Below are positions 8,901 to 57,300 of a stretch of DNA of 64,000 bases, piece by piece. This stretch comes from Neelides folsomi (taxonomy: Eukaryota > Arthropoda > Collembola > Neelipleona > Neelidae), in assembly GCA_034687125.1 (NCBI GenBank), contig JAQGBZ010000032.1:292209-356208 (forward strand). Direction: 5' to 3'. How positions within the stretch are numbered: position 1 is the stretch's first letter; each line of letters opens with the position of its first letter. Position numbers and translations under genes: made by a program. The notes below the pieces were generated by a model, which was not told the origin of the DNA, made no database searches, and worked only from the letters and a program-made list of their open reading frames with translations.

Positions 8901-10615
8901 TCTTTCCCATTTTCTGATAAATTCATCATTTCAATGTCATCTTGGTTATCCAGTCTGGATAGATCTTTAGATTGAGTTGAACAAAGTAAAAGATTTTCCC
9001 CATCGTTCCTTCGTGGTTCAGGGGGAGTATTAGCCAAAAGAACAATCTGTGGATCATTTTCATTTAATATTGATGGACTCGGCTCTCGCTCAACATCGTA
9101 GTTTTCCTTTTCTACTTCATTTTCCATTATTTCCTCTAATTCTTTATTATTTAATGATTCAATACCCTCTGGAGAGATTTTCTTTGGGATGTTATAGTCA
9201 TGGTCGGAAATCAACTTTCTCTTTAGTAAACTCCTCGTGCTCTCTTCATCTTTAGATGTCGGAGATTTCTCAGGAGCATCGACCGAATTCTCTTCAATGA
9301 GATTTGGAGTTTCGGGTGACTTTGAAATCGAAGGAAGAAATGAGTCCTTGGATTTCTTTGGAGTTTCTAATTGTAGGAGATTTGAAGAAGGTACTTCTTC
9401 TTCGGAGAGTGAAATCTCAATTAAAGGAGTTTCATTTTCTTTTATGTTTGCACTAACAATTTTAGGAGATTCTGTTTCAGTAATTTGATTTAAGGAAGGT
9501 GTTTCGTTAGAGTTGTCTTTGGGTGGAACAGGAACTGATAGAATCTTTGGTTTTATTGTACGCTTTTTCCTCTTTTTAGGCGCTACTGTTTTTCTTATCG
9601 ATTTAATCGGGATTTTTTGATTAATTTTAGGAAGAATTTGATGTTGTAATGTTAGGCTTGTCATCTGAATTTGGGGCTGTTGAATTGAACATGGAGCGAG
9701 AATTATTGTAGTTTGAAGAGGTAAATTGTTCATCAGATTTGTTGGAGTCGCGATTGGCGACAATGAGGCAGAATCTGATGATACCGATGAAGAATTTAAA
9801 GGTGGAGGTTCCAAGTCGATTACTTCAATAACATCTCTTGATTCCTTATTTTTTAATTGCTCCTTTAAGGGAGTGGAAGTTGAAGGTTGTGTCTGAACAT
9901 CTAAATAAGACAAAATATAATTAATTTTAAATCCATATAAATTTTTGCTTAAATTTTTAAATGTGAGATGTAAAATATAATATAAACAGATCATCTTGTT
10001 TTCTACTCCTTGTCAGAAAATTGATAAGAAGTATGATTGTACTTGTGTTATATCTTTAAATATAGAAACTAATAAATTAATTTATTTGAATTTACCATTT
10101 GGCGTTGAAATCGAAGTATTTTGTTCATTCTCGAGATCTTCTGGCCTCAATTTGTTCGAATATTTGAGTTTTCTATTCCCAAGAATATTTAACGATGGTC
10201 CGTAAGGAATTGTTATTTTAGCTTGAACCAAAAGAGCTTTCAATTGTTTTACCCTGAGTATCAGCTTATTCACTTCATCTTGCAATTCTTTTATCAGCTT
10301 ACCTAAAATTCAAAAAATTAAATAAATTCAAGGAACAAGCAATTTATGCAAACTGCAAGATAATTTGTTTATAAATTATTTAATAAAAAAAATATAAATA
10401 CTCTTTTCGTCGTTTTCAGTTCGGTCGATTAAAAGTCTCGAACTTGATAATCGAAGTTCTTTAATAAACTGGGCTGACTTTTCAAGAACATCAATTTTGG
10501 CATATGTTTTAGCTGGATCGTAAGTTGGTAATAGTTCTGATAACGTCTTAAATGCATCATTTAATCGATCTCTTCTCCTTCTCTCCCACTCCTTATTCTT
10601 AGAATTGTCTTTCAT
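5939..10615 (-). CDS. USF3: USF3-type bHLH transcription factor
   Basis: Three exons: 10615..10402, 10302..10096, 9900..5939; phases agree and give 1460 residues. The ATG at 10613-10615 is the only in-frame ATG before the bHLH; the reading frame is closed by a stop just upstream. The bHLH is at about residues 6-57, with basic region ERRRRDRLN, helix 1 AFKTLSELLPTYDP and helix 2 KIDVLEKSAQFIKEL. A leucine-rich coiled segment follows. Exon 3 encodes a huge low-complexity tail rich in Gln, Asn and Ser, with poly-Gln and poly-Asn runs. Near the end, NFNMSSIFPEI closely resembles NFNMTSLFPEI as I recall it from the C-terminus of vertebrate USF3, and YYAESLL recalls YSAEALI. Vertebrate USF3 is longer (about 2200 residues). 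Nuclear, DNA-binding role inferred. Confidence 0.7.
6634..6681 (-). repeat. CAG/CAA triplet run encoding poly-Gln
   Basis: Interrupted CAG/CAA repeat, read on the minus strand, within the USF3-type tail. An ATT/TTA triplet run at 7762-7780 encodes poly-Asn in the same gene. Both are likely length-polymorphic. Confidence 0.8.
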
Positions 10616-32659: not shown

Positions 32660-34099
32660 CTAATCTGTTCCAAAATATCTTTGACCTGTAAAATAGAAGG
32701 AAATGAATTATTATGTAGAATATTCATTATGTTAAGGCTATAATAATATTTTTAAATGGCGATATGTGTCTGAAACTCACCAAAATGATTAGGAGCAACT
32801 GGATGAACCTCTGAAGTCAATATTTTCATCTGAAATAATTAAGATTGTTAAAACACATTCTACTAAATTGATATTATAAAACGTGTTCTATTCTAGTTCT
32901 GAAGAACTATACCTTCGGAAATGTACTCAAGACACTTCTAACAGCATGTGGTGTGCAGAAGAGATTCGCAAGAACGACGTTTTCTTCAAGTACATTATGC
33001 TCTTTGAGCACATTCACAGCTTTAATCACTGTATTTCCAGATGACTACAATATAATATATCGTTATTATAGCATAATATTAACTAGAATTAACTTCGTAA
33101 AATATAATTCATAAGTGTTAAACAGATAAGTTCAATACCATTATTGGGTACATGAGTATCACTTTTCTTATAGAAATGTCCTCGGGAAATCGAGCTAGAT
33201 AAAACCAAGAAACATAATTAATATTATTAGATACATAAGACAGCGGGCATGTACGAGTATTTGAATAATTGTAGATTATGAAGAGTAATCTTTCCTCACG
33301 ACCAACGGCCTTTAGGAGTAGATTATAATGAATGAACTATGCAATGATTATGATTTTAATTACCGTAAACGACATGAGCTTCGTGAGTTTCTAAGTCGCT
33401 TTCAACGAGAATTTTTCCAATTCTTATTGAACGGCAACAATCGCGAAGACCTATCAAAACATAACTTTTTATGATTTAAGTTCTGTACATTATAAAAATG
33501 CAAAATAATAAGAATAAATATTGAATAATAAATCTAATGGAATCTTGAGTAATATTTTAAGAAGTCATTGCCTTGTTCCATTGCTTCTCCACTTCTTACA
33601 ATGCTGACTCCGCAATTTCCTTTCTCGTACTTGAGACCTTCGTACGGATTACCAGTTGGAGTTTGAATTGTAATCTTTTTAAATGGTAGTTGATTCAAAC
33701 TCTCTTCTATTACCATTCTGATCTAAATTAACATCAGGACAAAAATATGAGAATAATGAATTTTAATTAGGTATTATATATTGATGAAATTACCAGTCGA
33801 TCAGCGTAGAATTTGAAATCACTCCGTGTAGTATTTCTGAAAAAAATTAAATAAAATATTAACTATGATAAATAAAAAAATAGATCATGGGAGTAGGCAG
33901 TATTATTATTTTATGCTTATGGATTAGGATAATAATTTTACTTGTCTCGTATGATTGTCTGGAGTTCCCTTATTTGATCACTCGTTGGAAGCAATTTGAA
34001 ATTGTTTCCAAACTCCGTCTGAATTGGACTTGGACTGTAGCAAAGTGGAGGTGTTGAATTGCCTTTAAGATGTTTTTCCGAACATTGTTCGTTAACCAT
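32660..34099 (-). CDS. UPRT: Uracil phosphoribosyltransferase homolog (UPRT)
   Basis: Eight exons: 34099..33942, 33836..33794, 33722..33572, 33450..33364, 33194..33139, 33044..32913, 32829..32781, 32685..32660; phases agree, 233 residues. Family segments: DQIRELQTIIRDK, YADRL, EESLNQLPFKK, GNCGVSIVRSGEAMEQG, LRDCCRSIRIGKIL, MYPIMSSGNTVIKAV (the PRPP-loop region), TSEVHPVAPNHFGQRYFGTD. The third intron starts with GC (CAAG|GCAATG at 33572/33571), the second GC-AG intron in this window. UPRT would make UMP from uracil and PRPP. As in vertebrate UPRT, the PRPP loop and C-terminal end differ from bacterial enzymes, so catalysis is uncertain. It is head to head with ABCB7. Confidence 0.92.
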
Positions 34100-34339
34100 T
34101 TTAACGAGGCTAATTGTTAAAGTATTTAATATACTCTTTTCTAAAGTAAATGAATCAATGCGAATTTAAATATGGACTCGCTGAATCAATGAGAGAGAGA
34201 TCGAAAGAATAGTGCGAGTACTGCGAGTAAACAAAATGGTAAAATGTGCAGAGCGGACGGAGTTGGAACATGTGGAATTTGTATTCGATAAATTTTGATC
34301 TGCGCGGGAGCTAACGTGTTTAGTTAGTTAGGAGCTCTA
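34100..34339. promoter_or_regulatory. Bidirectional promoter between UPRT and ABCB7
   Basis: Only 240 bp separate the two divergent start codons, so the core promoters must share this space. It holds GC-richer stretches and no clear TATA box. Confidence 0.55.
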
Positions 34340-37300
34340 ATGGCTTACGTGTTGGGAAATTGGAAATATTTTATTAATCAAAATTGTAAATGTTTTATTA
34401 ATGCTAGTCAGCTAAGATACTCGTCATCATGTCCAAGAGGGACCGGTGGGTCAAAGTGGAAAAGATGTTTGAAGCAGCCCAAAATTCCGAATAATTTGAA
34501 ACAATTCCAGGTAGGTTCATTTTAAATTCATGGTCAAGCACCATCAGCTGCGAATGAGACATTTCTCATCAGCGGTTGCCTAAATGTTTCACAACATATT
34601 TGACTATTAATTTATGTAATTTAATTATCAATCTAATTTAATTATACAATATTTAAACATTGTTACACGTGGTATATCTTTTGACTTCAAAACTAACCAT
34701 TTAACTGACAAGTAAACTTGTGGAGATTCGCTGTTCGTTCTCTTCATTCTTCATCCAAAGGAAAGTGCATTAAAACTACAATTTAAACAAAATGGACTCA
34801 AAGCCAAGTTTATCAACATCTGGAAGGATAAAACGGTTGAATTGTTGTGAAGAAAATATAACCATTTTAAAATGGTTACACAAGAGAAGTCGTGATTTTC
34901 AGAAAGGAGACATTGCACCGGCTAATTTCTATTTTATTAATTCTAAAGGGGAGGAAAATTACTACAGAGGATTTTCAGCAAGATCTTCTATCTGCAAGGG
35001 CTCTAACATTCTCACATTACCTGAAAAATTATTAATCACATCAAATGAGTTCTCTTCAGAATTGTTTCAGAAATTGTCAATTTTGGAAGAATCTGAAGGA
35101 TGTAAAGTTGAAATCCAAGATAAATTCGCCTTATTTCTTTTCCTTCAACTCGAAAATGGAGATAATGGCAATAATGAATACTCACCTTATTTGAAAACAT
35201 TACCAAAATCATTTTCTGAATTGCCAGCTTACATCGATTCATTTGAAGAACTTCCCTTTCCTCCATATTGTAAAAGTCTCATCAAAGATCAACTAAACAA
35301 GATTCGGAAATCTTATGAAATTTTTAAGAAAATCAAAACAGACTTGTGTTATGAAAAGTACAAATACTCGTGGTTTGCTGTCTATACACGTTCCGTTTTT
35401 TATTCAAACAATGGAGAAAAAGAAATGGCTCTTGCTCCATATTTCGACTTGTTCAATCATTCTTCAGACCCAAATACTTCAACAATTTTTGATGCAAAGT
35501 CAAAAAGCTACGTAATAACTGCTACATCGAACATAAAGAAAAATGAAGAAATTACCATTTCTTATGGCCCTCATCCAAATTACAAGCTTTGGATTGATTA
35601 CGGATTTGTCCCGAATTTCAATTCACACAATTTCATCCCTCTTAAATTTGAAGAGCTGAAAAACGAATTCTGGTTAATGGATACAATGAAGGATCTGAGA
35701 AAGAAGAATTTTATTGAAAAAAATAGATTCAATCTAGAATTGAATTTATTACATGGACATGAAATGAGTTCCAATTTGTTGTTTTTAATTCAATCTTTCT
35801 TTTGGAACCCAAAATTTTCATTTTATGATTTCTCTTTAAATTCACAAAATGTTCCTACAACCAAAGTTAAAGAAATAATGAAAGAAATAGTTTTAAGAGA
35901 GTTAAATAAACATAAGACGTGCTTAAGCCTATTAAGTTCAAATTCAAAAAGTGCAAGTCTTGAGACTGCAGAGCAATTTCTGACCAATTCAATCATCTTC
36001 TTGATGGGATTTAAACTTTAGATTCTTGTTGTGCAACCTTGTCGTTCGTGCTTTCATCCTGGAGTCGCAAGCTTAGCTCGTGAATCAATCAAACTCCCTG
36101 ATGGAGCCGAGAAGGAAGTCAAGTCTAGTCAAATGCTTAAAGCCATCTTATCTCATTTATGGCCTAAGGTATCATAATTTAATTCTAATCCTAATTTATA
36201 CACTATAAGTAAAATTAATTATTATCCAATTAATTGAGTTTTGATAAACAGGATGAACCTGAAATTCGCCAAAGAGTTTTGGTGTCTCTTGGACTCCTCA
36301 TTGGTTCTAAAGTAGTGAATGTTTCAGTTCCATTTCTTTTTAAAGTCGGGGTTGATTCCTTAAGTCCGGGAGCCTTAGTATTGAACGACGTGGTGGGCAC
36401 AGTCAGCAACTTCACTTTCGCTATCCTTCTTGGCTGTGAGTTTCGCTCTCCTTTCTTTTTTAATTGCTAGGTGGATTTTTACACGGAACGTGTAATGTAA
36501 TCTGATTAAACTTTTTTATGTTTCATTATATTATAGACGGGATAGCCAGAGCTGGTGCGGCAGGATTCAATGAGTTGCGGAATGCAGTTTTTGCCAAAGT
36601 TGCCCAACGGAGCATTCGAAAAATCGCGAAAAATGTTTTCCTTCATTTGCATAACTTGGATCTTTCTTTCCATTTGAGTAGACAGACAGGCGCGCTATCA
36701 AAGGTAATCTGCTAATTATTTTTTATGTTTACTCTTCTCACATTATTTATAATTTGTATATAGACAATTGACCGGGGCTCAAGGGGAATTAACTTTGTGC
36801 TCACAGCAATGGTGTTTAATGTTTTTCCTACAATCTTTGAACTTGGACTTGTATCAGCATTACTTGTAAGTAGCACATTCAATTAATAAAAATGTCATAT
36901 TTTTAATTGAGGGTTATAATTTTTTGAATTTTACAATGTTTCTTTATTACTGTATAATTCTTATTGTACATAACGAAAATATTTTTTGAAGGCGTACAAG
37001 TACGGAGCTGAATTCGCTTATGTGTCTGTTGGATGCGTGTCAGCCTACGCCATTTACACTTTAGCTGTCACTCAATGGAGAACAAAATTTAGAATTGACA
37101 TGAACAAAGCAGAGAACGAGTCAGGGAACCGAGCCGTCGACTCCTTGCTCAATTATGAAACTGTCAAATATTTCAACAATGAGAAATATGAAGCTGATCG
37201 CTATGATAAGATTTTAGAAAAATTTGAAGTCGCATCCCTTAAGACCTCGACCTCCCTCGCAACCTTAAATTTTGGACAAAATGCAATATTCAGTGTGGCC

Positions 37301-40300: not shown

Positions 40301-41988
40301 AACCTTATTGGATGCGTAGTTTTTGGGAGTTTCAAGGTTACTTTTTCCTCCTCTTACTTGTCGTTAGATATGATCACTCACTAGAGGAATTCAAGCTTTC
40401 GAGACTTTAGACCATTAGAGAAATTAATCAAGAGGGGTCTACATGTTTTTTTAAATCATAGTCATATTGTTCAATCAAGGACCGACTTGTATCATGTTAA
40501 GAAAGAAATGACTCATTGATCTCTGAGGAGAACATTGGCTTTTGGCTTTCCAGGGGGTAAAGATAAAGCTCCTGTCTTGAACGAATTTTCAATTTGGAAT
40601 TTTGATAATTTTTTATATATCTTGTGTACCATATAATCATTTTATGCTCATTGATTCTTCTTTTAATTAACATTCTATTATAATTACAATATGCTTACTT
40701 TGCCCTAACATAACAAAAGCCCTTCATGGCAATTCATGTAGTATTCGTATAAATGAGAGGAATGCTCTTTATTGATGTTTACTATTAGGGCTAATAAGTT
40801 TGTATTTGCTTTTATTATTACAGGAAATCTACAATTATTCGACTTCTCTATCGATTCTTTGAACCCCAGGAAGGGTCGATCAAAATAGGTTCAAAGGAAA
40901 TTTCCGAAGTTGACTTGGAATCGTTAAGGAAGTCAATCGCTATCGTACCACAGGTGACGAACACTTGGAACTTGATACATAAAAATAAATATATTAAGCC
41001 TGTGTACCAGAAGTTCTACAAATAAACAATTATTTTAATGTTTGTATTTCATGGTAAACTTTTTTTGAATGTTGTAGGACTGTGTCTTATTTCATGACAC
41101 GATTGGTTATAACCTCAAATATGGGAATTTGAATGCAAGTGATGAGGAGATGAAGGAGGCAGCTCAGATGTCAAATCTCCATGAAGCAATTCAAAGGTGG
41201 CCAAAGGGATATTCGACCCAAGTTGGTGAACGAGGCCTTAAATTATCTGGTGGAGAAAAACAACGTGTGGCAATTGCAAGGGCCATTCTTAAGGAAACTC
41301 CTATACTAATATTTGATGAAGCAACGTCCTCCCTCGATTCTATTACAGAAATGGTCAGTATGCATTCCTAGTTTTTACTTAACAATGGTAATTCCTTACA
41401 GCTTTGACAGATTTAGATGTAAATAAGAAGATTAAAGAAAACCTTTGAAGCCCTTTAGTTAAGAACTGTTTGGCCCTTTTCCTAGGTTCCGCGTCAAGAA
41501 TATTTATGGACAGTACATAATATACTCGTACTTAAATACACCCATTCCTATATTTGTAAATATTGGTCTCATCAATCAGCACCTTTCAGAATTTTTTGCT
41601 TTTAGGGAATTTTGTTATTAGATAGTCTGAATGAATTTCTTGATATTTTGAGATTATTCGTTAGCTTGAATTATTCCTCGGAAGTTGTTCATGGGACATA
41701 CCTGTATTCTATTCTAGGTATAGGTACAAGGTGAAATGGAACATTGTAATGCAATAGTTTACATTCTTACAGAACATACTGGAAGCACTGAAAAAGGCTT
41801 CGGCCGGGAAGACATCCATTTGGATAGCCCACCGTCTCTCCACCGTTCAAGACGCCGATGAAATTCTGGTTCTCGAGAACGGTTGCATCATTGACCGCGG
41901 ATCCCACAACGAGCTCCTGCAGAGGAAGTCGCCGTTGTACTTTTCACTCTGGGCCACTCAGAACAACACGAAAGGGATTGACAAATAA
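34340..41988 (+). CDS. ABCB7: Mitochondrial ABC half-transporter ABCB7
   Basis: Exons: 34340..34510, 36022..36168, 36252..36435, 36537..36703, 36764..36865, 36992..37343, 37488..37645, 38973..39136, 40824..40953, 41078..41353, 41773..41988. All phases fit; 688 residues. It exports a glutathione-linked sulfur or iron-sulfur species from mitochondria for cytosolic Fe-S assembly. Exon 1 encodes a presequence without acidic residues near its start ([17 protein letters not shown]). The membrane domain has [40 protein letters not shown] and [20 protein letters not shown]. The nucleotide domain has Walker A GGSGSGKST across introns 8/9, [16 protein letters not shown], Walker [13 protein letters not shown] and the H-loop in WIAHRLSTV. 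Introns 37646-38972 and 39137-40823 hold nothing recognised. Intron 1 contains SETD4. The vertebrate protein is about 60 residues longer, with a Cys-containing tail missing here. Confidence 0.95.
34792..36021 (+). CDS. SETD4: SETD4-type SET-domain protein, intronless, nested in ABCB7 intron 1
   Basis: A single 409-residue open frame from ATG 34792 to TAG 36019-36021. SETD4 is a SET-domain lysine methyltransferase of the LSMT/SETD3/SETD6 group. Seen: [11 protein letters not shown] at the start, [39 protein letters not shown] (the NHS-type cofactor motif), and [17 protein letters not shown] (the YGPH..N..L...YGF signature). A helical Rubisco-LSMT-like substrate domain follows. The stop codon provides the AG acceptor for ABCB7 exon 2, and the two frames are in register. 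No introns are present, unlike vertebrate SETD4, so a retrogene origin is plausible. The promoter must lie in 34511-34791. No obvious polyadenylation signal is seen before ABCB7 exon 3. Confidence 0.92.
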   Translation: MDSKPSLSTSGRIKRLNCCEENITILKWLHKRSRDFQKGDIAPANFYFINSKGEENYYRGFSARSSICKGSNILTLPEKLLITSNEFSSELFQKLSILEESEGCKVEIQDKFALFLFLQLENGDNGNNEYSPYLKTLPKSFSELPAYIDSFEELPFPPYCKSLIKDQLNKIRKSYEIFKKIKTDLCYEKYKYSWFAVYTRSVFYSNNGEKEMALAPYFDLFNHSSDPNTSTIFDAKSKSYVITATSNIKKNEEITISYGPHPNYKLWIDYGFVPNFNSHNFIPLKFEELKNEFWLMDTMKDLRKKNFIEKNRFNLELNLLHGHEMSSNLLFLIQSFFWNPKFSFYDFSLNSQNVPTTKVKEIMKEIVLRELNKHKTCLSLLSSNSKSASLETAEQFLTNSIIFLMGFKL

Positions 41989-44900
41989 AATTATCGTAAA
42001 ACGCTCCCACTTATTATTTATTGGGTTCAACATCGATGTGCGTCAGTTTAAAGGGATTTTTATTTTTTACAAAGTTTAAAGTATGTAAATATAGATATAA
42101 TCGATCTTATAATTTACTAGTAAGTAAAAACTACAAGTTTAGTTATTTATGCACATAATTTGTAGATGCATCTACGTCCGCTCAATAGATTAGACTTGCA
42201 GAAAAGGAAATAGTGAATTATCAAGTAGAGATGATGGAAACTTCCTTCCATGATGTTTACCTGAAATAAGTGCGAAATTTTCCAAATGAATCTTTCTATG
42301 ATTATATATGGTTTTTCTATTAAGCTTCCTACGGTGCTAGCCAATTACAATCGTGAAAGGTTTTGAGAAGAGTTAGAAGTCTTCAAACTAATTGCCCATT
42401 TGCATTCGCTCCATTTGAGCCAATCATGGTAGTTCAATGAGAAAGGAAGAAATTCATGAATTCGTAATAGATTACATAGGATTCTACCATTATTCTACCA
42501 TTCATATTTAATGATTTTGTTTAACTTCAACCTACTTTAAATTACTTATTACGTATAGAATACTTACCCAGTTATAAAACACAAATAGTATCATTTCAGA
42601 ATTAGGCTTTTGAAATTTGTCAAGGTTGTCATTTACGATCAATGAAGAATTAATTATTCAAATGGAGTTCCAGATTTAAGCTGAGCACAACTTGAAAGCA
42701 TATGTATTTAAGCCCAAGCAGGGATTATTAAGTACTTATTTACTTATTAAATGTTTGCCTGACCTACCTGAACTCGTTCATGGTTGGCTTTTTTTTATTA
42801 GAAAGCACGACATTCTTAGACTTTGACCTTTATTTTAACTCAAATATGTAGCTGCGCTTGGGACTCGTTATGATCGCAAATCTTGTAAATTTTTGCTATG
42901 TAGGTGAGAAGTCGAGGAGCTTCGGAAGAATTCTTATTGAATGCAGATGGGACGTGCAAACTGCACAGAGTCACTGTGCACATCACACCTTCCTTTATTT
43001 ATTTACATGGCATGAGAGAAAGAAGAAAGAATGTGTGAAATGAGCCAACGGACCCTCGCGACTTTCTTGCAGTTAAATTAATTACATCCGTCGTTTGTAT
43101 TAATTAAATCCACAGGTTTGGAAGATGACCGCTATTAATTATGAGTAAATTTTTATTTTATAATTGACAAGAACAAGTTTAGAAAATGAAATTCAACCGC
43201 CACGTCCTAGTAATCCAAATGAGGATGAAATTTTTGACGAGAAAGACAAAAACATTTTATTCTAATGAAATTCGTAATTTATATTAGCTACAAAAGTAGT
43301 TTTAACTGACATTAAGACGACTCTAGTGGCTCGAGGTGGAGAAACGGGATTTGGGGGCATTTAGACTGAATGATTGATTATTCATGAATATTTAAATTTA
43401 AGTTGGATCTGATTGGGACGAACATGACAGTTCACTTTGTTTCCCCAAGTTTTCTAACTCATTATGGTAATAAAGGTCAGTTTACTTGGCTGAAACAATG
43501 AAATCTTCAATGTTAAGGTACGATTTAAAAACACCAATTATTGTGAATCTATTGGGTCATTCTTAGCAAAACGAGGCATTTTGGTGTAGTTAAATGACAA
43601 TAAGGAAGGTGTAAATGAATACTCTTCTATAGTGAATGCTCGCAGTAGTGTTATTTGAATCATGTTACGATCCAACAACTACCATAATACATATTTTCCA
43701 CCGAGATCTCACTATGTACGATAATTAGAGTGGAGCCGAAGCAAAGGATCTAAATGGTATAAATTAAAGATAAAACTCGTAGACTGAAAGATTTGTGGAA
43801 TGAAAGGTGAAAGGACATTTATTGATGAGAAAGATTAATCCTACTTGGATTTCTAAAAGAAGAGTTATGATATAGAAAACTTGCATAAAACTTTTAATTC
43901 TTCCCCTTTTACTTTAACAACTTTAATGGCGTCTTTCGTTTTCTTATGCACATAAAGTTTTTTTTACTTGTTTTCTAATCGAGTTGTCTCAAAAGTTTAT
44001 TTGAGCCAATTCCCTTTTATGACAGGGATTGACGATGAGTTGAACACTTTAATCTTGAACAGCTTCGATCGCGTTGATCTTTTCATCCACGACGGTAATT
44101 ACAAGTTATCAAACAAACTAACTTCATATCTCTTAATCCATCGCCTCAAAGATCTACAAGTTTTTAGAATTGGGGGGAAGGAAACTTGCGACGAAATCCA
44201 ATGCCATCTGAAAATAATAATATTTATTTGGCCAATTTTCTTTTATGTAAACCCATAATAATATGTAAAATAATAGCCCGTGTTCATTTTAATGATATTG
44301 TCTTTTTATATAAAATAAATTCATAACGATAAGCATTGATTGACTGTTATCAAATTCATGTTAACACAATAGATGGGAAATGAATTATGCAAGGGTTTTG
44401 AATTGACTTCTCCCTTTTGATGTATTTACGATGAATATTTCTCTTCAAATTGAAAGAGTTGATTGGAGGTGAATATAAATTAGAGAATCGTGATATGAAT
44501 TTTGAATTTCGTTTCATTATTTTAAAAGGGAATGTGCATTAATAAAGTAGGAGAAATTTGCTGCAAAGCGGAAAAGGGAGCTTGTCGTAGAACAATGACC
44601 CAATTCTTTCTGAGGTTGGGTCGGGCAGCAGTTACGACTCCTTAACCTATCACAAGGTTTTCCCTAATAGAGTTGGAACACATATTTGACTCTTCTTCAT
44701 CGAATGAACCGAAAGTGGGTAAATGAAAGAGGGAATGAAGTTATGAGCAGATTCTTGTTTCTCATGCCAAATAAATCCAACCCTCACTTCCAAATATATT
44801 GAGGCAGGAAGGACTTATTAGCATTTTTATCCATTAAAACCTGCATGAAACCTGGGCCTTCCCATTCCTATCAAATTTCTCCATAAACTTTGAATATTTT

Positions 44901-47900
44901 GACTTCCTCTTCTTATTCGCTTCCTCCCAAGTCCACCTTCATCTATAAGCATGTCGATGATCTTCTAAAATAAGATAAGCTTACATGTGCTCTACATTCA
45001 TTTAATTAGAGCTTACTTAGTTTAGAAATAACTTTTAATTTACACATTAGGACCAAATTACTCTTATTTACTAACTTATTTATTATGTAGCTTAATTTTT
45101 AATTACTAGAATTGCACAACTTAAATAGTAAATAATCAATGCGTAAATAATAAATATGTAAGCAGTGTGTATGTTCGAATGCACATTAAATTAGACATAA
45201 TACATTAATAATAAATGATAGATTTTGAGATCCGTCATAAATAAAAAGTGACAATTGCTTCTCATGATAAGCGATGTGCTTAAGCGAACTGCGCACAAAT
45301 TTTTGCAAATTATAAGACGTAGAAGCCATATAGCTCTTAAACTCTTACATAAAAGTACTTGTAAAGAGGAATAAAGTCTTTGGAAGTCATGAAGAATGAA
45401 TGTCATTTGGGGGGCGGAATACGTCATATTTTTTTTCTTAATAAAATTATGAAAATGGGGGTAAATTGAGTTTGGAAAGCCGAAACAGAAGCCCATCAAT
45501 TGTGTGTGGGGGAGTGGAAAACGCTACAGGTTGTACGTAGCGTAGAATGTCTAGGAACTAACCTATCTCAAGGAGAGAGATGGAGAGGCTGTGCAGACCC
45601 TGCACGCATCCTCATCATTATTATGACACATCCATTCCGCGAGTAAAAACTTGGGGAAGGGTAGGGTTGCTTCAAAGTCATTTCCTTCACACCTCGTTTG
45701 CTCCCAGCGTTAGAGGACGAGAGGTTGCCCACCTCAGCCCAAGACAGATATTAACCATCCGAACTTCACAACCCATCAATCATCCAATGCTCAAATACCC
45801 CATTCATTCCACCACACATGAACATTAAGAGGGGATTCCTTAAATTAAGAGAGGGTTTCTTAAGATTCTTAATTTTGCCAAGGTCTGTGCTAAATGTCTG
45901 GGCCTTCAAAGTAAAATGTTATGATCGATATTTTTAAAATTGAATAATTTAATAGTTCATGGGAATGAGCTCATGTTTAACTTCCAGACTAGTTTGGCTC
46001 AATGTTCCTTTTGTTGTGCTAGGTTAGGAGTTTGAAGAATGCCGACTTGGAAGCCTTTTTAACATTTTCACTTCCAACCTTTAAAATTTCATTATTGATT
46101 TAGCTTGAAAATGGAAACAGTATTTTTGCTAAAGTCTACATAACTTTACATAGATTTGGAAGAGAGAAATTTCACTTTTGCAAACGAGCGCTATATAAAC
46201 TATAAATGGAATGATTATATTACAAACATGATACATTTTATTGCATCAAAGCACAAGGCTGAGATTTAAAAGATTTAGAATCAAAAACACATCTTCACTC
46301 TTAATATGCATATCTATCTAAACAGATGGGCTTCATAAAGGTCAAAGGTAAAGGAGGATGCGTATCATGGCGTCTTTACAAAAATGAGGATCTTGAACCT
46401 TTAACGGCCGATAATACATACATTCTCAATGAAAGCCCTTTCTATGCAAAGTGTGGTAAAAGATTAAGTTGTTTGTTTGGAAAAGGCTAATAAAAGAATG
46501 TTCAAATGTCGATTGTTCATGTTCGCTCTCCATCAATTCTATTTCTGCTTTCAAATTCATGAAAGTAATATGATTGGTATATCTATTAGTTTATGTAATT
46601 CGCCAAATCATCAGCATAGTAGAAGTCTGTTAGTTATTGAAGTGGATATGTTACTCGCTTTGTCTCCTCTTTTTAAGCGGTTTAGGAATGACGTCGAACT
46701 TGCATGATAATACATATTTGCCTGTTGTCTCGAGAAGAGTAAACATGAGAACGGAACTCAAGACGCAAGCCTATGAAAACGGCGGAAAAGTCCCGACCTG
46801 CCTCAATGTCAAATGAAGATCATTTGAAGAATCCATTTAACATGAGTGGATCGAACCGACATGGAAGCAATAGGAAAACCTTCACTCACTCTCATACATA
46901 TGGTGAAAAGCAAATGATGAATCTCTTCAGCTCAACCGATGCGCAATTTCATATAAGCCCCATTCATCCAACAACCTTCGGCTATTAACTCCTGTTTATA
47001 ATACACTTCATAATAACACTAATATGATAAGTTGTGGAGAACTTCTTTCTTTATATCTTTATCTACTCAACTATCAACATGAATCATTCACTTGACATTC
47101 GACTGTGGTGTCATTCTCGTTCTGTTATTTTCATATTCCCTGATTGACATTTCTGTTATTAATTAACCATATTTTGCATTTTCTTGCCGAGTCGTCGATA
47201 AGTCACGAAATTGAACCGTGTTTTTAAAGGTTTATGAGGCAAGTAAGGTACGCATTTAGAATTATTTTTATCCAAGCTTGATTATCAATTTAATAAGATT
47301 CCCTTATCTTCGACTAGAGTAGAGTTTCATGTAGAGTGAGAGTTTCATGAAAAAGCTAATTTATGCTACAATCATTATTCAATACCTCGACGTATTCAAG
47401 TTCAAGGGATGAAAATGGTAAAAAATGTTATGTGAGTTGATTGCTGAACGAGTTAAAATGCTTATAGGAGCTTAATGTTCATAATTATAAAAATCTTCTT
47501 TTTATGTGATTGCATAATTTTGGCTCTTGATTTAATAGAATGTGAGTATGACTTGGCACTTGATAAATAATTTTGCGATTTCGTCTACATTGTATAGCTT
47601 GTTTCATATTACATGCGAACTATTTTCAATAAATAAATATTTCGTGTTTGTGACTTATTCAAATTACAAGATTTGTATTTATTTTCTGCACAACTAGTAC
47701 ATACATAATATCTGTGCTTGATTGTTTATTTAGACTTTATTATATGGTAGCCTGGTTTATTATTTTTGTATCGTTTTAATGATACTTTTAATAGGATATT
47801 AAATACGCCAGTGTTTTTATTTGGGTATAATTTGGAACCATGTTTCATATATTGAAATATGAATACTTTATTAGAAATAATTTGGCTCGGTTATGCGTGT

Positions 47901-50900
47901 ATTTTACGAGTTTTATACAATCCAACACTTATGAATGAAACACGATGTGAGAAATATATCATTGTTCATATTCATGACATGTTTATTTTCTCTTGAGCAA
48001 AAAAATATGACGATATGTCGTATAAGATTATGAGGTCATTTAGAGCCATAACATTTATTTAACTTGTTTACAAAGTTGAACTCTTCTCCGATCCTTTTTC
48101 TTCGATCTCTATAAATGAGAGTTGCAGATAAGGGTCTGGCACTCATAAGAATAAAATGTAAGTTGAAGACTATTGAGGTAGGATATGGATAAAAGAAAGT
48201 CCCAAGTTGTTCTGTACATATTTGATGTTCATTTTGAGTAATGATAAGTACAGGTTTTTCAAGCCAGCATGCAACATGTCTCATTAAAGTGAAGTTGAAA
48301 TGAATCTTCCTATGCTATTGTCGTATGTAAGTAGTTGCTTCAATTCTCTCTTCCAACTAGGCGAATTTGGCTCTGTTAGTAAATAAATGGAAACGAGCCT
48401 TGTATGCGTCAACTCGCGTGGATGGCTTGGAATCTCTGCGAATTTATAGAAAGTCGTACCAGCACAGTCTCATCTGTCAACGATCATTTCCAATCATTTT
48501 TATATTATAAACTTTCTTTGTATTTATTTTTCTATTAACACCAAGTTTGCATACAGTGCCTTCTTCAATTAATAATAATAATAAACACGAGAAAAAATAA
48601 TTGGAAATGAATCAGAGTTATTTGTACGCATAATTATAATGTTAGAACATTTCCCTTTGAGTATCATCATAACAAGTATGTAAAGTTGTGATGACATATG
48701 GAAATGATGGAGACTTTGATTTAAATAAGCTATTTACTTTTAGTGACATTATAGTTAGTACACACATTAGCCATACAAAAAACATACTGGTTTCATTTAT
48801 TACCTTTTTTAATTATAATTCCGCATTTCCACACAAAATTAAACTTCTCAAGTTTAATTCTTATCTGATCAAATAACCTGCTTAGCAAACTTTAAACTAA
48901 AAGTTCCGACTCTCACAACACATGCCCTTTTCATAATATTCCCAATATTGGTTTTTTATCTGAGGTAGAAGTAGTAAGCATTTAATGTTTTGATGTAATT
49001 TCCAACAAATAACTCAGAAATGGGGAAATACAAATTGTAGAGAGCCATTAAATTCTCATTGAAATGCCGAGTGAAAACTGTCAATTGTCATTTCTACACG
49101 AAGAAGATGTAAAAATTGAGCACACAACACCGGTCTGACCTGAAGTGCAGAAACAGTTCATGGAATATTTATCGAGAACGGCAGAGATGTCTCATATCAA
49201 ATGCATCAAGTAGCCCAAAAGAAATTGAGAGTAGTATTTGTATGGATGAGGATGAATTGTGAAGAGATTATTTAACCAGATTTCATTCCCTGAAGAACCA
49301 TTTATCCCCGCTTATTACGGGTAAGTATGGGCCATAAGTAGTCTTATGATGATTTTATGAACATGTGCAATCATACAGAACATACATAATAATTCGAGCG
49401 AAAACTGGAGATTTGCATAAGGAATAATAAATGAACAAGAGTTGGGAGTACACATGCGTTCGGCCCTGATAAATAGAAAAGAATCCCGCACCAAGTTGTT
49501 GAGCCGAGTGAGTGAGTGTTTGAAGGGGAATGTAAAGGATATTAAGGAAGGTTAGTTTGGGAGAATCAATACAATTATAATATGGTAGAATGCTTCATAT
49601 GCCCCGGCTTCCAAAAAGAAATCAATTTGTACAGCTACTCGTGTCCATTCAAAGCACTCTAAACTTTTAATGTTATTTATCTTTGAGACGATCAAATATG
49701 AATTTTACTCTCATCCTACACAATAGGATTTTAAGGTTCAAAATGGGATCTAATTGTGTTATATTCATATCACTTATTGTTTCTTACATATAGAGATTAA
49801 TACGCCGCTCCATGTCTCCATTTACTTAGCTCTTTTTGAAATAAAATTCCAGGAGGGGAGTTTTTAGTATGGTAGGTCAAGAGAGTCGATGGATTCCCCC
49901 CAACATTACTCATAAATGTCCCAAATAGGAGGCGTGAAGTTCTTTAATTGAGACTTAATGTACCCACCGACTTGATTCCAAGAACTGCTGGCCTCTGGAC
50001 TTATTGGATTAAGAAGGAAATGAAGGGGTTGTTTAAGCCCGTGAGTCTCGGGTTCTAAGAATAATTTTTGTCTTTATCCTTCCTTCATTGGTGACAATCC
50101 GTCAATAAACCCCTTCCCAACACTCATTCACAGAGAATTGAAAATTTGTTCCTCGTGGTTCGATAAGTATTTGATTCATTTCTCAGACAGACTTCCAGAC
50201 ATTGAACTTTTGATGCTTCCTCAATGATATTTTTAACATTTTCTTTTATGTCGCGCATTAACCTAATGTATTTTAATGCCTAGCTTGATAATATTCGTGT
50301 GATTCAAAACACTGCTCACTAATTTATCAATGTATGATGAACACATGCTATATATCTGTACATATGTTCGTATTTAAGTCATTTAGTAAGTACATCATGT
50401 ACATAGTACACGTATATATGATATGATAATGAAAACTAAGAAACATAAAATTAAGCCTGAACATTGAAATGTATTAAATAATTGGTAATAGAATAGATAA
50501 TTGAAAACGTATTGGTCAAGAGGATCTTGAACTTTTAACGTGCCATCGTCAACATATAAGATTTGTGTACTAATCCTTTCGAAAATTCAAAATGCTCAGA
50601 ATTCGGCTTTTGATGTTTCAGTTTAGCTTCTTATTTTACATTTCAATGTTAAATCAATGTCATTTTAATAACATATGTCCGTTCAAGACTACATATAACT
50701 TTAAATTCACAGTTCAATAAGTTAAAAACGATACTACTCGTATAAAGGCCCAAAATTGAAAATTAAGTATCTAGAAATAATTAAGTATCTTTACCTGTAG
50801 ATTATAAGTATTTAATAAACGTATATTACCCAAAGTAATGATTTAAATTCTATCTGAATGTCCAACTAGCTCACCATATTTTAATACAAAAGTTACACAT

Positions 50901-53900
50901 TTACTCAAGTAATAAAAGGTTGAAGGAATCCACAATACACATAATAAATATATTTTGTATATAAGTTTATATTATGTATGTTCTACTTTAGATATTTAAT
51001 GATTTAATGGCTCTCCTAATTAATTTGGAATATTTTAATGTGATAAATTTTAGTATCTTAAATTTTTGTAAGCATCTAAAGTCTTTTCATTTGTTTATCA
51101 ATTTTGCAAACTAAAAACAAAACTATCGGTCTATACATATTTGTGTTGATTATATGAATGTAAACAAAAGTTTATAATATTATTGCACACGAAAATGTTT
51201 TTTACACATACTAATACTTATAAAGATAATTAAAGGTTTACGAAAGCTTTCCTTATGCATTACCAGTGTCAATTATTAGAGTCGAAAATATCTCACTCAT
51301 TGTCAGTATCAGTGTTTTCAATTTATGCGCTTTAATTTTACTATTTATCATAAGTACGACGTAATCTCGATGTCAGAGAAGTCAAAGATAAAGTTGGACT
51401 AAAGTTTGAAAATAATTCAATATCATAATGGATCCAAAAGTTGGATATTTACAATTTGTTGTTTTTGCATGAAGGAAATTTTTAGAGTGAGTGTAAATAA
51501 TGCCAATTGTATTTCATTCAAACTCATCGATAACAAGTGAGGAGCATTGTATTGTAATCTCTATTTAAAATCTGGAATTCTTTTATGTATAATAAAGTTG
51601 AAAGTTTTGAAGTGAAAATGATCATTTGTTATGAACATGCCAATTGCGTGCTTTTTACTCTAAGGAATTTTTATGGTGGATTATTTGGAGCTTCATAACC
51701 CGAACCTTACGCAAATTGTGTTTATCGAAGTTTGAAATGTAATATGCTCAATAATTCGCCCACTCATGTTTGCTCACCGTTCAGAGTTCAAATGGAAAAA
51801 AATAGTGAGGAACAATAAAATACTATTGCGTATATTTGAGACATAATCTTTTATTATAGTATACTGCTACTACCTAATTGTTCCATAGAAGAGTCTCCTC
51901 TTCATTTAATAAACATTCCATAAAGTGTTTTGAATCAATAGGAATGGGATTTTATCAAATCATCAATTGCCTGATGTAAAACATGAAAATAATTAGGTAT
52001 TAATAATAATGTAATGGAATTTTTATATTTACATTCATCATCAGCCAGACATTGAATTCAATTGAATAATTGACATTAACTTTGTATTTAAACCTTTGTA
52101 ATAACTGTAATAGGGATGAAGTCAAAATATTTTACCAACTGTACTAACTTTAAGTAGCTTATAATTATACAAATGGAAGAATCTTTTGCTTCGGCAAATA
52201 TTTAAAAAGGACTATAATGATATACACCAATTCAAAACAAGTTATTGAAATAATTTCTATAAAGTCAAAATATTGTAATTTGTGAGTATCGGGATTTTTC
52301 AATAATCATACTATTCTGGGAATTCCACAAGACCAAGAACCCGGGGGATTTTGTGATTCGGAGAAAGAATTCACATTAGAAACGTTCGAATGTATGGAAA
52401 ATTACATCCCTGATAATTATCATATTCATCTTACTTAAAATTATATCTATTTTTATTTATAACACAACAAATGTGTTTTGATAGAAGAATCAAATCCAAA
52501 CAAATCTAGCACCTGGAATGAAACGAAAGGGTGAATTTATTCAGCCGCTATTTAACCTAACACAAGTACCTAAGTTAGTTATCAACTACACATAACTATT
52601 ATTATTTTCATCAGTCATTAAAGTTAAACGTGTCTGAACGATCGTACGGATTGTTTACACACCTTTTATTAAACCAAACAAGTATAAGTTTTATTTCATT
52701 TTTGTATTTCATGATACACTTATTTTCCTGTGAAGTAAATAAGGTAGTTACAGATAATATGTAAGTACAGATATGTATAAATATAAGCTGATACATTCTG
52801 AGAGAATGTTCTGAATCAGTTAAACATTAATATTATAAAAGAACTTTACCTACCTCAAACTTTATTGGAAGAAAGAAGCAAACAGTTCCATTTGAACTAA
52901 AAGGATGTTACACATGAAAATAAAATATATGAATATGAGGTTGACAGGCCGAGCTTCATTTACTCAACTTATCGTTTTGTTTGCTTGAGGGCGAGACGGA
53001 GAAAAGTTCATTAGTTCCTCTTCACTGGAGTTGGAACTTAATGAAAAGTGACGACTTGAATGCTAATTTTAAGTCCTTTATACAACAAAGAGCAAATGCG
53101 TTTAATCAGCAACTTCAAGAATCCACCTATAAAAATTATGGTTAAAAATGCATTTGGAATTTGGAAAAGAAATGATACGAGAACAAGTTGAATGTAGAAA
53201 TACGAGTTTCGTCAATTCATTGCTTCATCTCTACATGGCTCATCAATCAATTCATCTTTCAGACAGAACACCCTTAATATTGTTTTATGGTTCTTATTTA
53301 TTAGCATTTTGTTAGCATAGTATCTATTTATCACATTCAATTTCAAATTGTAACTTGGTCATACTTAAAGTAAGTATGGTATATAGGATTGTACTGCCTG
53401 GTATATTTACAATGTGAATCATGATCATTTGACTTTATGAGTAATTTTGTGAGAATAATACAATAAAGCGTTCATAAAGTAAATACAATACTTTCTTTGA
53501 ATTTACTGTGAGAAATTCCTCAAAGGATACCTTAAAAACTGAATTAATAAATAGGAAGTAATTGACAACTCTTGTTCATTTTTGCATAATTCACATGTTC
53601 CTCTCCTATTAATTTCTCCAAGATTATAATATTTAATATTGTACATGTGTTTAGTTTTTCTTTGACTTTTTATAGCACATGAGATAGGGGAGAAGAGAAG
53701 CAAGGTGATTTGCAACAAGATGGATGATTGGGTTAAGCCAGGTCAAGAATGGATAAATGGATATTCAAACCTAGCCTAACTTTTTCTTCCTTGCCTCTCA
53801 TTATACATGCAAGAAAGTAAGTGTTTTGAATGGATAAGGAACGAGACTGCACACATATCAACTATATAATATACACCACGCCACTTCGACCGCCATCGTG

Positions 53901-54340
53901 ATCTCATGAGGTTTAATATCTTTATGTTAATAGCACGAGTAAGACGTGCGCTCTACATGGAACTCTTATGAAATTTGGCTCACTCTCAGTACTTGCTTCT
54001 TCTTCTAAATAGTGTAAATAGAATCTTGAAATAAATTGTGAGAAATGGAATCTAATTCTAATTTATGCAATTGGGATGGTGGGTGCCGAACTGTTGATCA
54101 CGTTTTATTTGTCATTAATAATATTATAAGCTAAAATTTTGAAGAGATTCTTCTGTCTGGGATGTCTTATTTGAATTGACGGGAGTGAATGGACTACATA
54201 AAAATACCAATTAAGAATATATTGCAAGTACTTTTGTATCTCTATACAGTACCAGTATTTAATAATGTAAAAGTCGAGTGTCTCGCCATAGTGCGTCTAA
54301 TATTATTAAATAAGTAGTCGACTACTAATTCTCTCTGTAG
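41989..54340. other. 12-kb stretch with no recognisable gene
   Basis: AATAAA overlaps the ABCB7 stop (41984-41989). Short open frames (for example 42858-43043, 43968-44258, 45191-45499, 45580-45828, 46477-46707, 46773-46988, 48036-48284, 53503-53718) have no family features and no convincing splice partners. Slightly GC-richer islands occur near 45540-45720 and 54390-54680. The region may hold 5' introns, untranslated exons or enhancers of the zinc-finger gene to its right. Confidence 0.5.
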
Positions 54341-54350
54341 TGCCTATGAT

Positions 54351-57300
54351 ATGAACACTGGAGGAGTATTTAGCATTCAATCGAACAGACCTGATGTGAA
54401 TGGGAAGGTAAGGGCGAGGAGGATGTCTGCACTGTATGTATATTTTCCAACCTTTTTTGCGATAGGATGGCAGAAGCCGGCTCCCATCCAGTTAATGCTC
54501 ATGAGCTGCAAGGCGGATGGGGCACATCAAGTTTTAAGTTGTTGTAGGTAAGGGTTCGCGTTGACGTCTTGAAAAGCAACTCCTCTTCCTTCCTACCCTC
54601 ACTCCCTCGTTGCTCCCACGACGAGCGGATGACTTCAAGCGTCCTCGAACCCCCATCACCAACCACGTCGACGACGGACCTTAACACGTGCTCAAAAACA
54701 GACCATCTCTCCTATTAAATATATTGGTGCCTCCGTAGGACTATTTTACTATAAAGTTCATTATGAGTCAAGTCGAAAATATTATTACAAGTGTAATTTA
54801 ACTATAAGTAATAAAAAGGAGCTTCGAATCAATCAAGAGACAGGGTTAATTGTGTCCTATTGACAATGACAATATTTGCAAAGTGGATTAAATACAATTA
54901 CTTGAACTGTGACCCTGTGATCTGTTTACATCATGAATACCTTCAAGGACTAAAGAAATCAAGTTTGGACGTTCAGAAAGCTTGAGCCGTTTTGATTCAA
55001 TTTAAGATAAAAAAGTTGTGTGGGTCTTTTAGTGGAATGTGATTCAGGTCCTGAGTGTGATTATGAATTTGATTGAAAAGCTGAAGAATTTGTATTATGG
55101 GTCCTAGGAAATGTGTTCTTGGGGGAATGACCACTGTAATCAAAGTAAGTCGAGGGAAATTGGGGTAATAGGGATATAGATTCATTTCGGGGAGGTTAAA
55201 TTATATAATATGGTTGAGCTATACAATATGCAATATTTATTAACCCTTTTATTTTCCTGGTAGAGAAATGGAGAGGAGAAAGGAACTTTATTTTCTCTTT
55301 AGCTTTTATAATATTTACATAAATAAATAAATGAATCCTAAAAGCCGAGTTCCTTTTGATATGGAAGTGGAGGAAGTCGAGATTTTACTTGCGTTTATTC
55401 CATCAAGTTGGATTCTCGAAGTTGAATTTAATTGAGTGGTTTTGGGTCACCGAAGTAGGAAATTTAGAACAAGAGGAATACTATTGTGATAGGTCTGGCC
55501 CAACGACGAGTTTGGCGTATTCCAATTGAGTTTCACGACCTCCGTCCCCTGGATCCTCTCCAGACTTTCTTTATTTAGATCACACAGCACCAATTTACCT
55601 TTACGAAAGATTTAACTCATCCATCAACCCAATTCTATTTTATAACCAATAATAAATCACTAATTAACACATTCCCTCGCTTTAAAATGAAACAAGCTCA
55701 ATAAATATTTTAAAGTGTTTATACAATAATACATACTCAATGTTTAATTAAAACTTCTTGATTAAAATCGTTTCCCTATTAAATTACAAAGACTGATAAA
55801 ACTAAATATAATTAATTATAGCAAAAATTTACCATTGAATTAAATAGCGGTTTGGCGCATAATTAATTAAGCACACACATAGTCCAAATGAACGCTTTCA
55901 ATTCATTATAATGAAGACAATACTAAAAATATCCACATAGTACTTACCACCATTTGATTAAATAATCTAATTTTGTTTTACGTACTACTTCCTTTCACTG
56001 AATCGGTGAATGATAGAGCTAAAAATGTCTGCGGTATATTTGAATGGTAGAGGAAAGGAAGCGCCATGTTAATTATATTACATATGTCTTATTTATTAGT
56101 TGATGAGACATTGAGAGAAACAATCTTTAACTCTTGTGTCAATGTTTTACATGTATTTACTTATTGTTAAACCATGCCTTGTTTCTCCCATTCTAATACA
56201 GTTTAAAAAATCCTTTTTAGCATGAGTTGACAAAGATGTAATTTGCCAATATCAATGACCAATTCAAGTTCAAAATCACATTTGGCCAACTTGAATAAAA
56301 CGTTTAATTTTTATCTAATCGAGTGCAATTCTTGGGAATTCCAAATAATTTCTTCTTGATCCTCTTTTTTCCAAAAAGGTGTTTATCAAGCTTAACTTGT
56401 TTACCCATAGACAAGTACTATTATTCATGACTAGTGATATGTTGACATGTGTCGGAGGACTTCTTTCATAAGTATATGGGCGATAGTAAAATTTTAATTG
56501 TTCTAGTATTATTGAATTGAGCCCAATTGGTTTTTATTATATAGCAAGTCATATTATTTTTTTAGAGTGGTTGGTTGGTATGTTCTAAAATATTTAACTC
56601 TAAAATAAGTTACCTATAAAAACTGATGTTTACAGGAGGGGGGACTTCTAAGGAACTCTGGATCTTGGACTGAAGACGTTGAACGAATGTCAGGAATTGG
56701 TGAGAGTGTAGACGTCTGCCCAATCGCCCCACACGACCTCCTCAGCATCCGCCTCGACATCCATCTTATTCCAACCATCCCCTTCGACCCTTTGAAGATC
56801 TTCACTCCCACTCAAACCCCGAAATCGAAGGTAGGAATTTCCTCCTTCTCCAATTGAACTCTACACCTTTCCCGCACCACACCAATGGACTTTTATGTAT
56901 ATATTTTGCAAAATAAGAGAGATATGCCATTTGGGACGTAATACAAATGTAATTACCCACCTTCTTTTTTTAATTGTTCGAGTTGATTCCGTAAGTGGGT
57001 ATATTATTACTACAAGTTATTTAATCTTATCTCTCTCAAACTATTATGATATGTATGATAATCATATAATATTATTATAATCTTTCCTCATTGAGGTGTT
57101 GAAACGTGCTATTCACAAACTCCCACCTTTTCGCTCGCCCGATTCTAATCATTAGGTTCAATGGGTATTTACAAATGTATTTATACGGATTTATTAGTTG
57201 ATGGAACAGAACATAGGACAACTATTTATAATTGTAGTTTTTTTTCATTCAATGGAAACTTTCAGGTCATTTATCGCTAAGTCTCTCTCTAATTCTCTTA

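What the first reader, a model, noticed from the sequence alone, without database searches (positions are those of the whole stretch)
34511..36168. Nested intronless SETD4 whose stop codon is the ABCB7 splice acceptor
The sequence shows an intronless 409-codon SETD4 frame filling most of ABCB7 intron 1. Its TAG (36019-36021) supplies the AG acceptor, so ABCB7 exon 2 begins at the next base. The two frames are in register: read-through of that one stop would fuse SETD4 to the ABCB7 body. A SETD4 transcript has no visible polyadenylation signal before ABCB7 exon 3, so it may continue into ABCB7 as a bicistronic or alternative-promoter mRNA. Retrogene insertion is the likely origin, as inference. 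The stop is locked by two constraints, termination and splicing.
Basis: partly seen in the sequence, partly recalled or inferred. Interest (0 to 1): 0.78.

Follow-up and report, generated by a model that had tools for sequence, protein, structure and literature searches.

The report
Gene nested inside a transporter gene
An intact, uninterrupted methyltransferase gene (SETD4) sits inside the first intron of a mitochondrial transporter gene (ABCB7) in an arthropod, and its stop codon appears also to serve as a splice site of its host; gene-in-gene arrangements like this are known, but the shared stop and splice site is an unusual detail worth an RNA test.

Summary
A 409-codon intronless SETD4 frame (34792-36021) lies on the same strand inside a 1511-base phase-0 intron of an 11-exon ABCB7. 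ABCB7 exon 2 starts at 36022, directly after the SETD4 TAG, and the human ABCB7 alignment begins at that codon. It is the only SETD4 found in the 75-Mb own genome, an arthropod's. The further claims are weaker. Retrogene origin is plausible, but no parent, convincing target-site duplication or poly(A) remnant was found. No AATAAA/ATTAAA lies between the stop and 36505, but 25 of 75 other long frames also lack one within 400 bases. The in-frame stop is partly automatic: a phase-0 intron with a TAG acceptor stops any frame open in that register. New: the acceptor scores poorly (rank 35 or 11 of 82 AGs), while 8 or 6 of 9 other ABCB7 acceptors rank first, so intron 1 splicing may be inefficient or regulated. 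Read-through fusion is unlikely. The architecture resembles the cholinergic locus (VAChT in ChAT intron 1) and nested retrogenes: a known kind with an odd junction. No RNA evidence was available.

The parts
34340..34510 (+). ABCB7 exon 1: ATG, 57 codons, probable mitochondrial leader, donor CAG|GTAGGT
   Evidence: leader role is inference, no homology support
34511..36021 (+). ABCB7 intron 1, 1511 bases, phase 0
34617..34791 (+). ATG-free 175 bases before the SETD4 start, candidate SETD4 promoter and 5' UTR; CACGTG at 34666
   Evidence: 2.3% of 17,734 overlapping background stretches of that length are ATG-free; promoter is inference
34792..36021 (+). SETD4 intronless coding sequence, 409 codons and TAG
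35980..35984 (+). CTGAC, branch-point-like, branch A 38 bases before the acceptor G; lies within SETD4 codons
   Evidence: consensus match only, one of 6 CTRAY in the intron
36010..36015 (+). TTTAAA, weak variant polyadenylation hexamer just before the SETD4 stop
   Evidence: 36% of random 40-base stretches hold one of 13 variants, so no evidence by itself
36019..36021 (+). SETD4 stop TAG, whose AG is the inferred acceptor of ABCB7 exon 2
   Evidence: weak by score
36022..36168 (+). ABCB7 exon 2, 49 codons
36252..41988 (+). ABCB7 exons 3-11 with their introns; stop TAA 41986-41988
33537..34099 (-). Part of a UPRT-like gene, head to head with ABCB7; ATG at 34099 taken as its start
   Evidence: UPRTase match for the fragment 33537-33722; the fragment 33938-34165 had no Pfam match, so its place in this gene and the start are read by eye

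Best explanation
A working SETD4 gene, most likely of retroposed origin, lies in intron 1 of ABCB7 on the same strand. Shown by sequence: one intact SETD4 frame, complete ABCB7, one shared junction. Inferred: ABCB7 mRNA starts at the UPRT-ABCB7 divergent promoter and removes SETD4 as part of intron 1, using the AG of the SETD4 stop. SETD4 mRNA starts from a promoter of its own inside intron 1 (about 34617-34791). It has no canonical terminator nearby, so part of it runs on and is spliced through ABCB7 exons, and part ends at weak sites near the junction. For a given transcript, splicing from exon 1 to exon 2 and production of SETD4 exclude each other. SETD4 codons occupy the place of the polypyrimidine tract before the acceptor and may weaken it, so ABCB7 splicing may be less efficient or regulated.
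For: Open SETD4 frame and SET domain; tyrosines Y258 and Y270 in the same spacing as human Y272 and Y284; full ABCB7 with the human alignment starting at exon 2; single SETD4 found in the genome; 175 ATG-free bases before the SETD4 start; no canonical polyadenylation signal for 483 bases after the stop, while 7 of 9 other frames of 300 codons or more have one within 60 bases; weak acceptor; like architecture in the cholinergic locus of ticks.
Against: No transcript data. The polyadenylation argument is soft: the 300-codon cut was chosen after seeing the list; of all 82 other distinct frames of 120 codons or more, 29 have A[AT]TAAA within 60 bases of the stop, and of the 75 with 400 bases held, 25 have none in 400, much like background (22% with one in 76 bases, 27% without one in 410). 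No convincing target-site duplication and no poly(A) remnant (and by eye). No TATAAA, TATATA or TCAGT in 34511-34791. A SETD4 mRNA spliced through ABCB7 exons would carry its stop 147 bases before an exon junction and so risk nonsense-mediated decay (general knowledge). SETD4 residues 323-409 do not align with human SETD4, so the original C-terminus is uncertain.
Confidence: 0.5

Rival explanations
1. SETD4 is an ordinary nested gene with its own complete short transcript: promoter in intron 1 and cleavage just past the stop, for instance TTTAAA at 36010 with cleavage in 36025-36045, or at AGTAAA 36208 or GATAAA 36243 in intron 2. Nothing bicistronic is made.
For: Variant hexamers at those places; many long frames here lack a canonical signal within 400 bases (25 of 75), so its absence need not mean run-on; the U/G-rich start of exon 2 could act as a downstream element (read by eye).
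Against: Variant hexamers occur in 36% of random 40-base stretches; 7 of 9 other frames of 300 codons or more do have a canonical signal within 60 bases.
Confidence: 0.35
2. Shared first exon, as in ChAT/VAChT: SETD4 mRNA uses ABCB7 exon 1 spliced to an acceptor near 34760 (or 34712), so the two proteins are alternative splice products of one promoter.
For: Tick VAChT uses a shared exon 1; AG at 34760 after a pyrimidine-rich run (by eye).
Against: Exon 1 contains the ABCB7 ATG, and with 31 bases from 34761 to the SETD4 ATG the two are out of frame (counted by eye), so SETD4 would depend on leaky scanning; these AG sites score low (34760 rank 43, 34712 rank 67 of 82).
Confidence: 0.1
3. The ABCB7 model is wrong at the 5' end: exon 1 at 34340 is not joined to 36022, and ABCB7 starts another way.
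For: The 36021 acceptor is weak and better-scoring AGs lie inside SETD4. Exon 1 has no homology support, and the first residues of exon 2 align with low confidence.
Against: Exon 1 has ATG, an open frame in the right phase and a consensus donor; acceptors upstream in this register run into the TAG; the next downstream AG, 36064, scores worse (ranks 63 and 72 of 82).
Confidence: 0.05

Closest known systems
Cholinergic gene locus (VAChT in the first intron of ChAT), as described for Ixodes ticks in PMC7524744 (passages seen)
   Same: Whole coding sequence of one gene in one exon within the first intron of another; two different proteins from one locus.
   Different: There an 82-bp first exon is shared and confirmed by RT-PCR; here exon 1 carries the host start codon and SETD4 probably starts on its own. 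The passages I saw say nothing of the VAChT stop being the ChAT acceptor.
Intronic retrogenes such as KTI12 in TXNDC12 and Mcts2 in H13 (PMC5408686, passages seen)
   Same: Retrogene in a host intron that can alter host splicing or 3'-end choice.
   Different: Here no parent copy was found and the stop abuts the host exon; retroposition is not proven.
S180r opsin retrogene in an intron of gephyrin in swordtail fish (PMC3087554, passages seen)
   Same: Retroposed gene in the intron of an unrelated host whose own expression persists.
   Different: S180r keeps one intron and its related genes still exist; no shared stop and acceptor is described in the passages seen.
Bicistronic loci such as MOCS1 and Adh/Adhr (recalled, not looked up)
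   Same: A stop codon between two frames of one transcription unit.
   Different: Bicistronic RNA is established there as I recall; not shown here.

Membership tests
SETD4 (class VII SET methyltransferase) | SET domain | tested here: met
   PF00856 E 7.6e-14, residues 60-259
SETD4 (class VII SET methyltransferase) | Two conserved tyrosines, Y272 and Y284 in human SETD4, the second absent from SETD3 (PMC9277757, passages) | tested here: met
   Y258 and Y270, spacing 12; SETD3 shows S at the second place (alignment). The second tyrosine is shared with SETD6, so it does not exclude SETD6 by itself
SETD4 (class VII SET methyltransferase) | Closer to SETD4 than to SETD3 | tested here: met
No SETD6 chain was named among the 15 PDB matches at E 0.01
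SETD4 (class VII SET methyltransferase) | C-terminal Rubisco-substrate-binding-like domain | tested here: inconclusive
   No Pfam match; residues 323-409 unaligned; single-sequence model unusable, mean pLDDT 34.7
ABCB7 | Full-length match to human ABCB7 | tested here: met
   Residues 58-682, E 1.6e-242, ahead of Atm1-type relatives (5.6e-213 and weaker) and ABCB6 (6.2e-144)
Retrogene | Intronless copy of an intron-bearing parent | tested here: inconclusive
   Intronless, yes; no parent found in the assembly
Retrogene | Target-site duplication or poly(A) remnant | tested here: not met
   Only AT-rich 10-mers shared between flanks; such marks fade if the insertion is old, so this does not exclude an old retrogene
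Cholinergic-type nested locus | Shared first exon | not testable with these tools
   Needs RNA

The most novel reading that the evidence does not exclude
The junction is a regulatory switch. SETD4 has no terminator of its own, so transcripts from its inner promoter are bicistronic SETD4-ABCB7 mRNAs that compete with, and lower, the iron-sulphur exporter ABCB7; they may also give a leaderless ABCB7 starting at the in-frame ATG 36133-36135. A quiescence-linked methyltransferase would thus be wired in cis to mitochondrial iron-sulphur export.
Probability: 0.1. Interest if true: 0.65.

Novelty: new member of a known kind. Interest (0 to 1): 0.3.

Why it matters
If RNA confirms the junction, it is a clean natural case of one trinucleotide under two constraints, translation stop and splice acceptor, and of a coding sequence that must also carry the branch point and tract of its host's splice site. 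SETD4 has been tied to diapause in Artemia (PMC9277757, passages), and ABCB7 serves iron-sulphur export (general knowledge; named so), so a coupling of the two would be testable biology. As it stands it is an instructive but not very surprising nested gene.

Tried and rejected
Stop read-through fusion: rejected as the main route (stop context from general knowledge; product without leader). SETD3 identity: rejected by the second tyrosine and score. A second SETD4 in the genome: not found; next match 25% identity, E 0.005; among 29 loci from other places scanned by tblastn the best match had E 4.6e-4. ABCB7 duplicate: none seen; the three other places, on C555, are 32-41% identical. Chance open frame: rejected. 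Structure of SETD4: single-sequence model too poor to use. NCBIfam: no match. Species name: not reached; 39 chitin_bind_4 places show an arthropod, and the rRNA search never ran. No Rfam family or tRNA in the window. Literature, in the held open-licence library only: no paper with SETD4 and ABCB7, SETD4 with nested, intron and retro, ABCB7 with UPRT and synten, or nested gene with splice acceptor, stop codon and bicistronic. No comparison with relatives was possible, as the own genome has none here.

Method limits. Acceptor models were trained on only 9 sites of the same gene, and most of the introns compared hold far fewer AGs (4 to 30; the two long ones 67 and 108) than the 82 of intron 1 with exon 2. 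In some searches four loci that repeat the window (L001, L007, L032, L033) were left out; the frames there are not all proven gene ends and much of the sequence comes from SET loci. The ATG-free background includes 42000-57000, assumed non-coding.

Full report
What is there. The + strand holds a stop-free frame from 34774 to the TAG at 36019-36021, with an ATG at 34792. The 409-aa product has a SET domain; its best solved relatives are SETD3 chains. Both tyrosines that a review lists as conserved in SETD4 (Y272 and Y284; PMC9277757, passages) are present, at Y258 and Y270, while the SETD3 chain shown lacks the second. The same review gives 397 aa for the Artemia SETD4, close to 409. I take the protein to be SETD4. 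Its last 87 residues do not align with the human protein, and no substrate-binding domain was detected.

The host. Eleven exons with GT-AG borders give a 688-aa ABCB7. A human ABCB7 chain aligns with E 1.6e-242 over residues 58-682; residue 58 is the first of exon 2, though the first residues align with low confidence, so exon 1 encodes only a non-conserved leader. Intron 1 runs 34511-36021 and is phase 0. SETD4 was found once in the 75.1-Mb assembly, and so was ABCB7; these searches score only the best candidates. The 39 chitin_bind_4 places mark an arthropod.

The junction. ABCB7 exon 2 begins at the base after the SETD4 stop. A TAG acceptor in a phase-0 intron stops any frame open in the host register, and 4 of the 10 ABCB7 introns end in TAG, so what mainly needs explaining is that SETD4 runs right up to the border without a 3' UTR. 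The AG before the acceptor lies 48 bases upstream, and a CTGAC has its A 38 bases upstream, as a working acceptor would; but a gap of that length is only the 7th longest of 86 here. Against the site, it scores poorly: rank 35 of 82 AGs with a position matrix and 11 of 82 with a pooled model, whereas 8 of 9 and 6 of 9 other ABCB7 acceptors rank first in their introns in the same tests, the two long introns among them. The models rest on 9 sites. No better acceptor keeps the ABCB7 frame; the next AG, 36064, ranks 63 and 72 of 82.

Ends of the SETD4 transcript. No AATAAA or ATTAAA lies between the stop and 36505. Among other frames of 300 codons or more in held sequence, 7 of 9 have one within 60 bases of the stop. 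But this cut was chosen late: of all 82 other frames of 120 codons or more, 29 do (35%, background 22%), and of the 75 with 400 bases held, 25 have none in 400 (33%, background 27%). So the absence is real but not unusual. Weak variants at 36010, 36208, 36243 and 36339 are expected by chance. At the 5' side, 175 bases without ATG precede the start, seen in 2.3% of background stretches; no TATAAA, TATATA or TCAGT was found, only TCATT at 34517 and 34744. An inner promoter is the simplest reading, by inference.

Origin. Retroposition fits the lack of introns inside a host with 10 introns, but single-exon SET frames that look SMYD-like by eye also occur in this genome, the flanks share only AT-rich 10-mers, no poly(A) remnant is visible and no parent was found. 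The ABCB7 start lies 240 bases from the likely start of a divergent UPRT-like gene (the first UPRT exon is by eye). I recall that ABCB7 and UPRT are also neighbours in human; if that pairing is old, SETD4 is the newcomer. That was not tested.

Known relatives of the arrangement. The tick cholinergic locus has the VAChT coding exon within ChAT intron 1 (PMC7524744, passages). A retrocopy review gives about 20% of 84,483 animal retrogenes as intronic and describes KTI12, whose expression forces cryptic acceptors and early ends in its host, and Mcts2 (PMC5408686, passages). This locus therefore belongs to a known kind. No held paper names SETD4 with ABCB7.

Verdict. Observation confirmed; interpretation partly supported; interest moderate to low until RNA is seen.

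Noticed in passing
33537-34340: A UPRT-like gene on the - strand seems to start 240 bases from the ABCB7 start codon, head to head (start by eye). I recall the two as neighbours on the human X chromosome, which would make this an old pairing; not tested.
   Followed up: partly
41984-41989: ABCB7 has an AATAAA overlapping its own stop codon, and some other long frames in this genome have A[AT]TAAA within a few bases of the stop; over all frames the excess over background is small.
   Followed up: partly
36022-36168: ABCB7 exon 2 is 147 bases between two phase-0 introns, so skipping it would keep the frame.
   Followed up: no
34792-36018: SETD4 has lower third-position GC (0.30) than its host ABCB7 (0.44).
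   Followed up: no
5942-10012: An uninterrupted 1357-codon frame on the - strand with no Pfam match at E 0.001.
   Followed up: no
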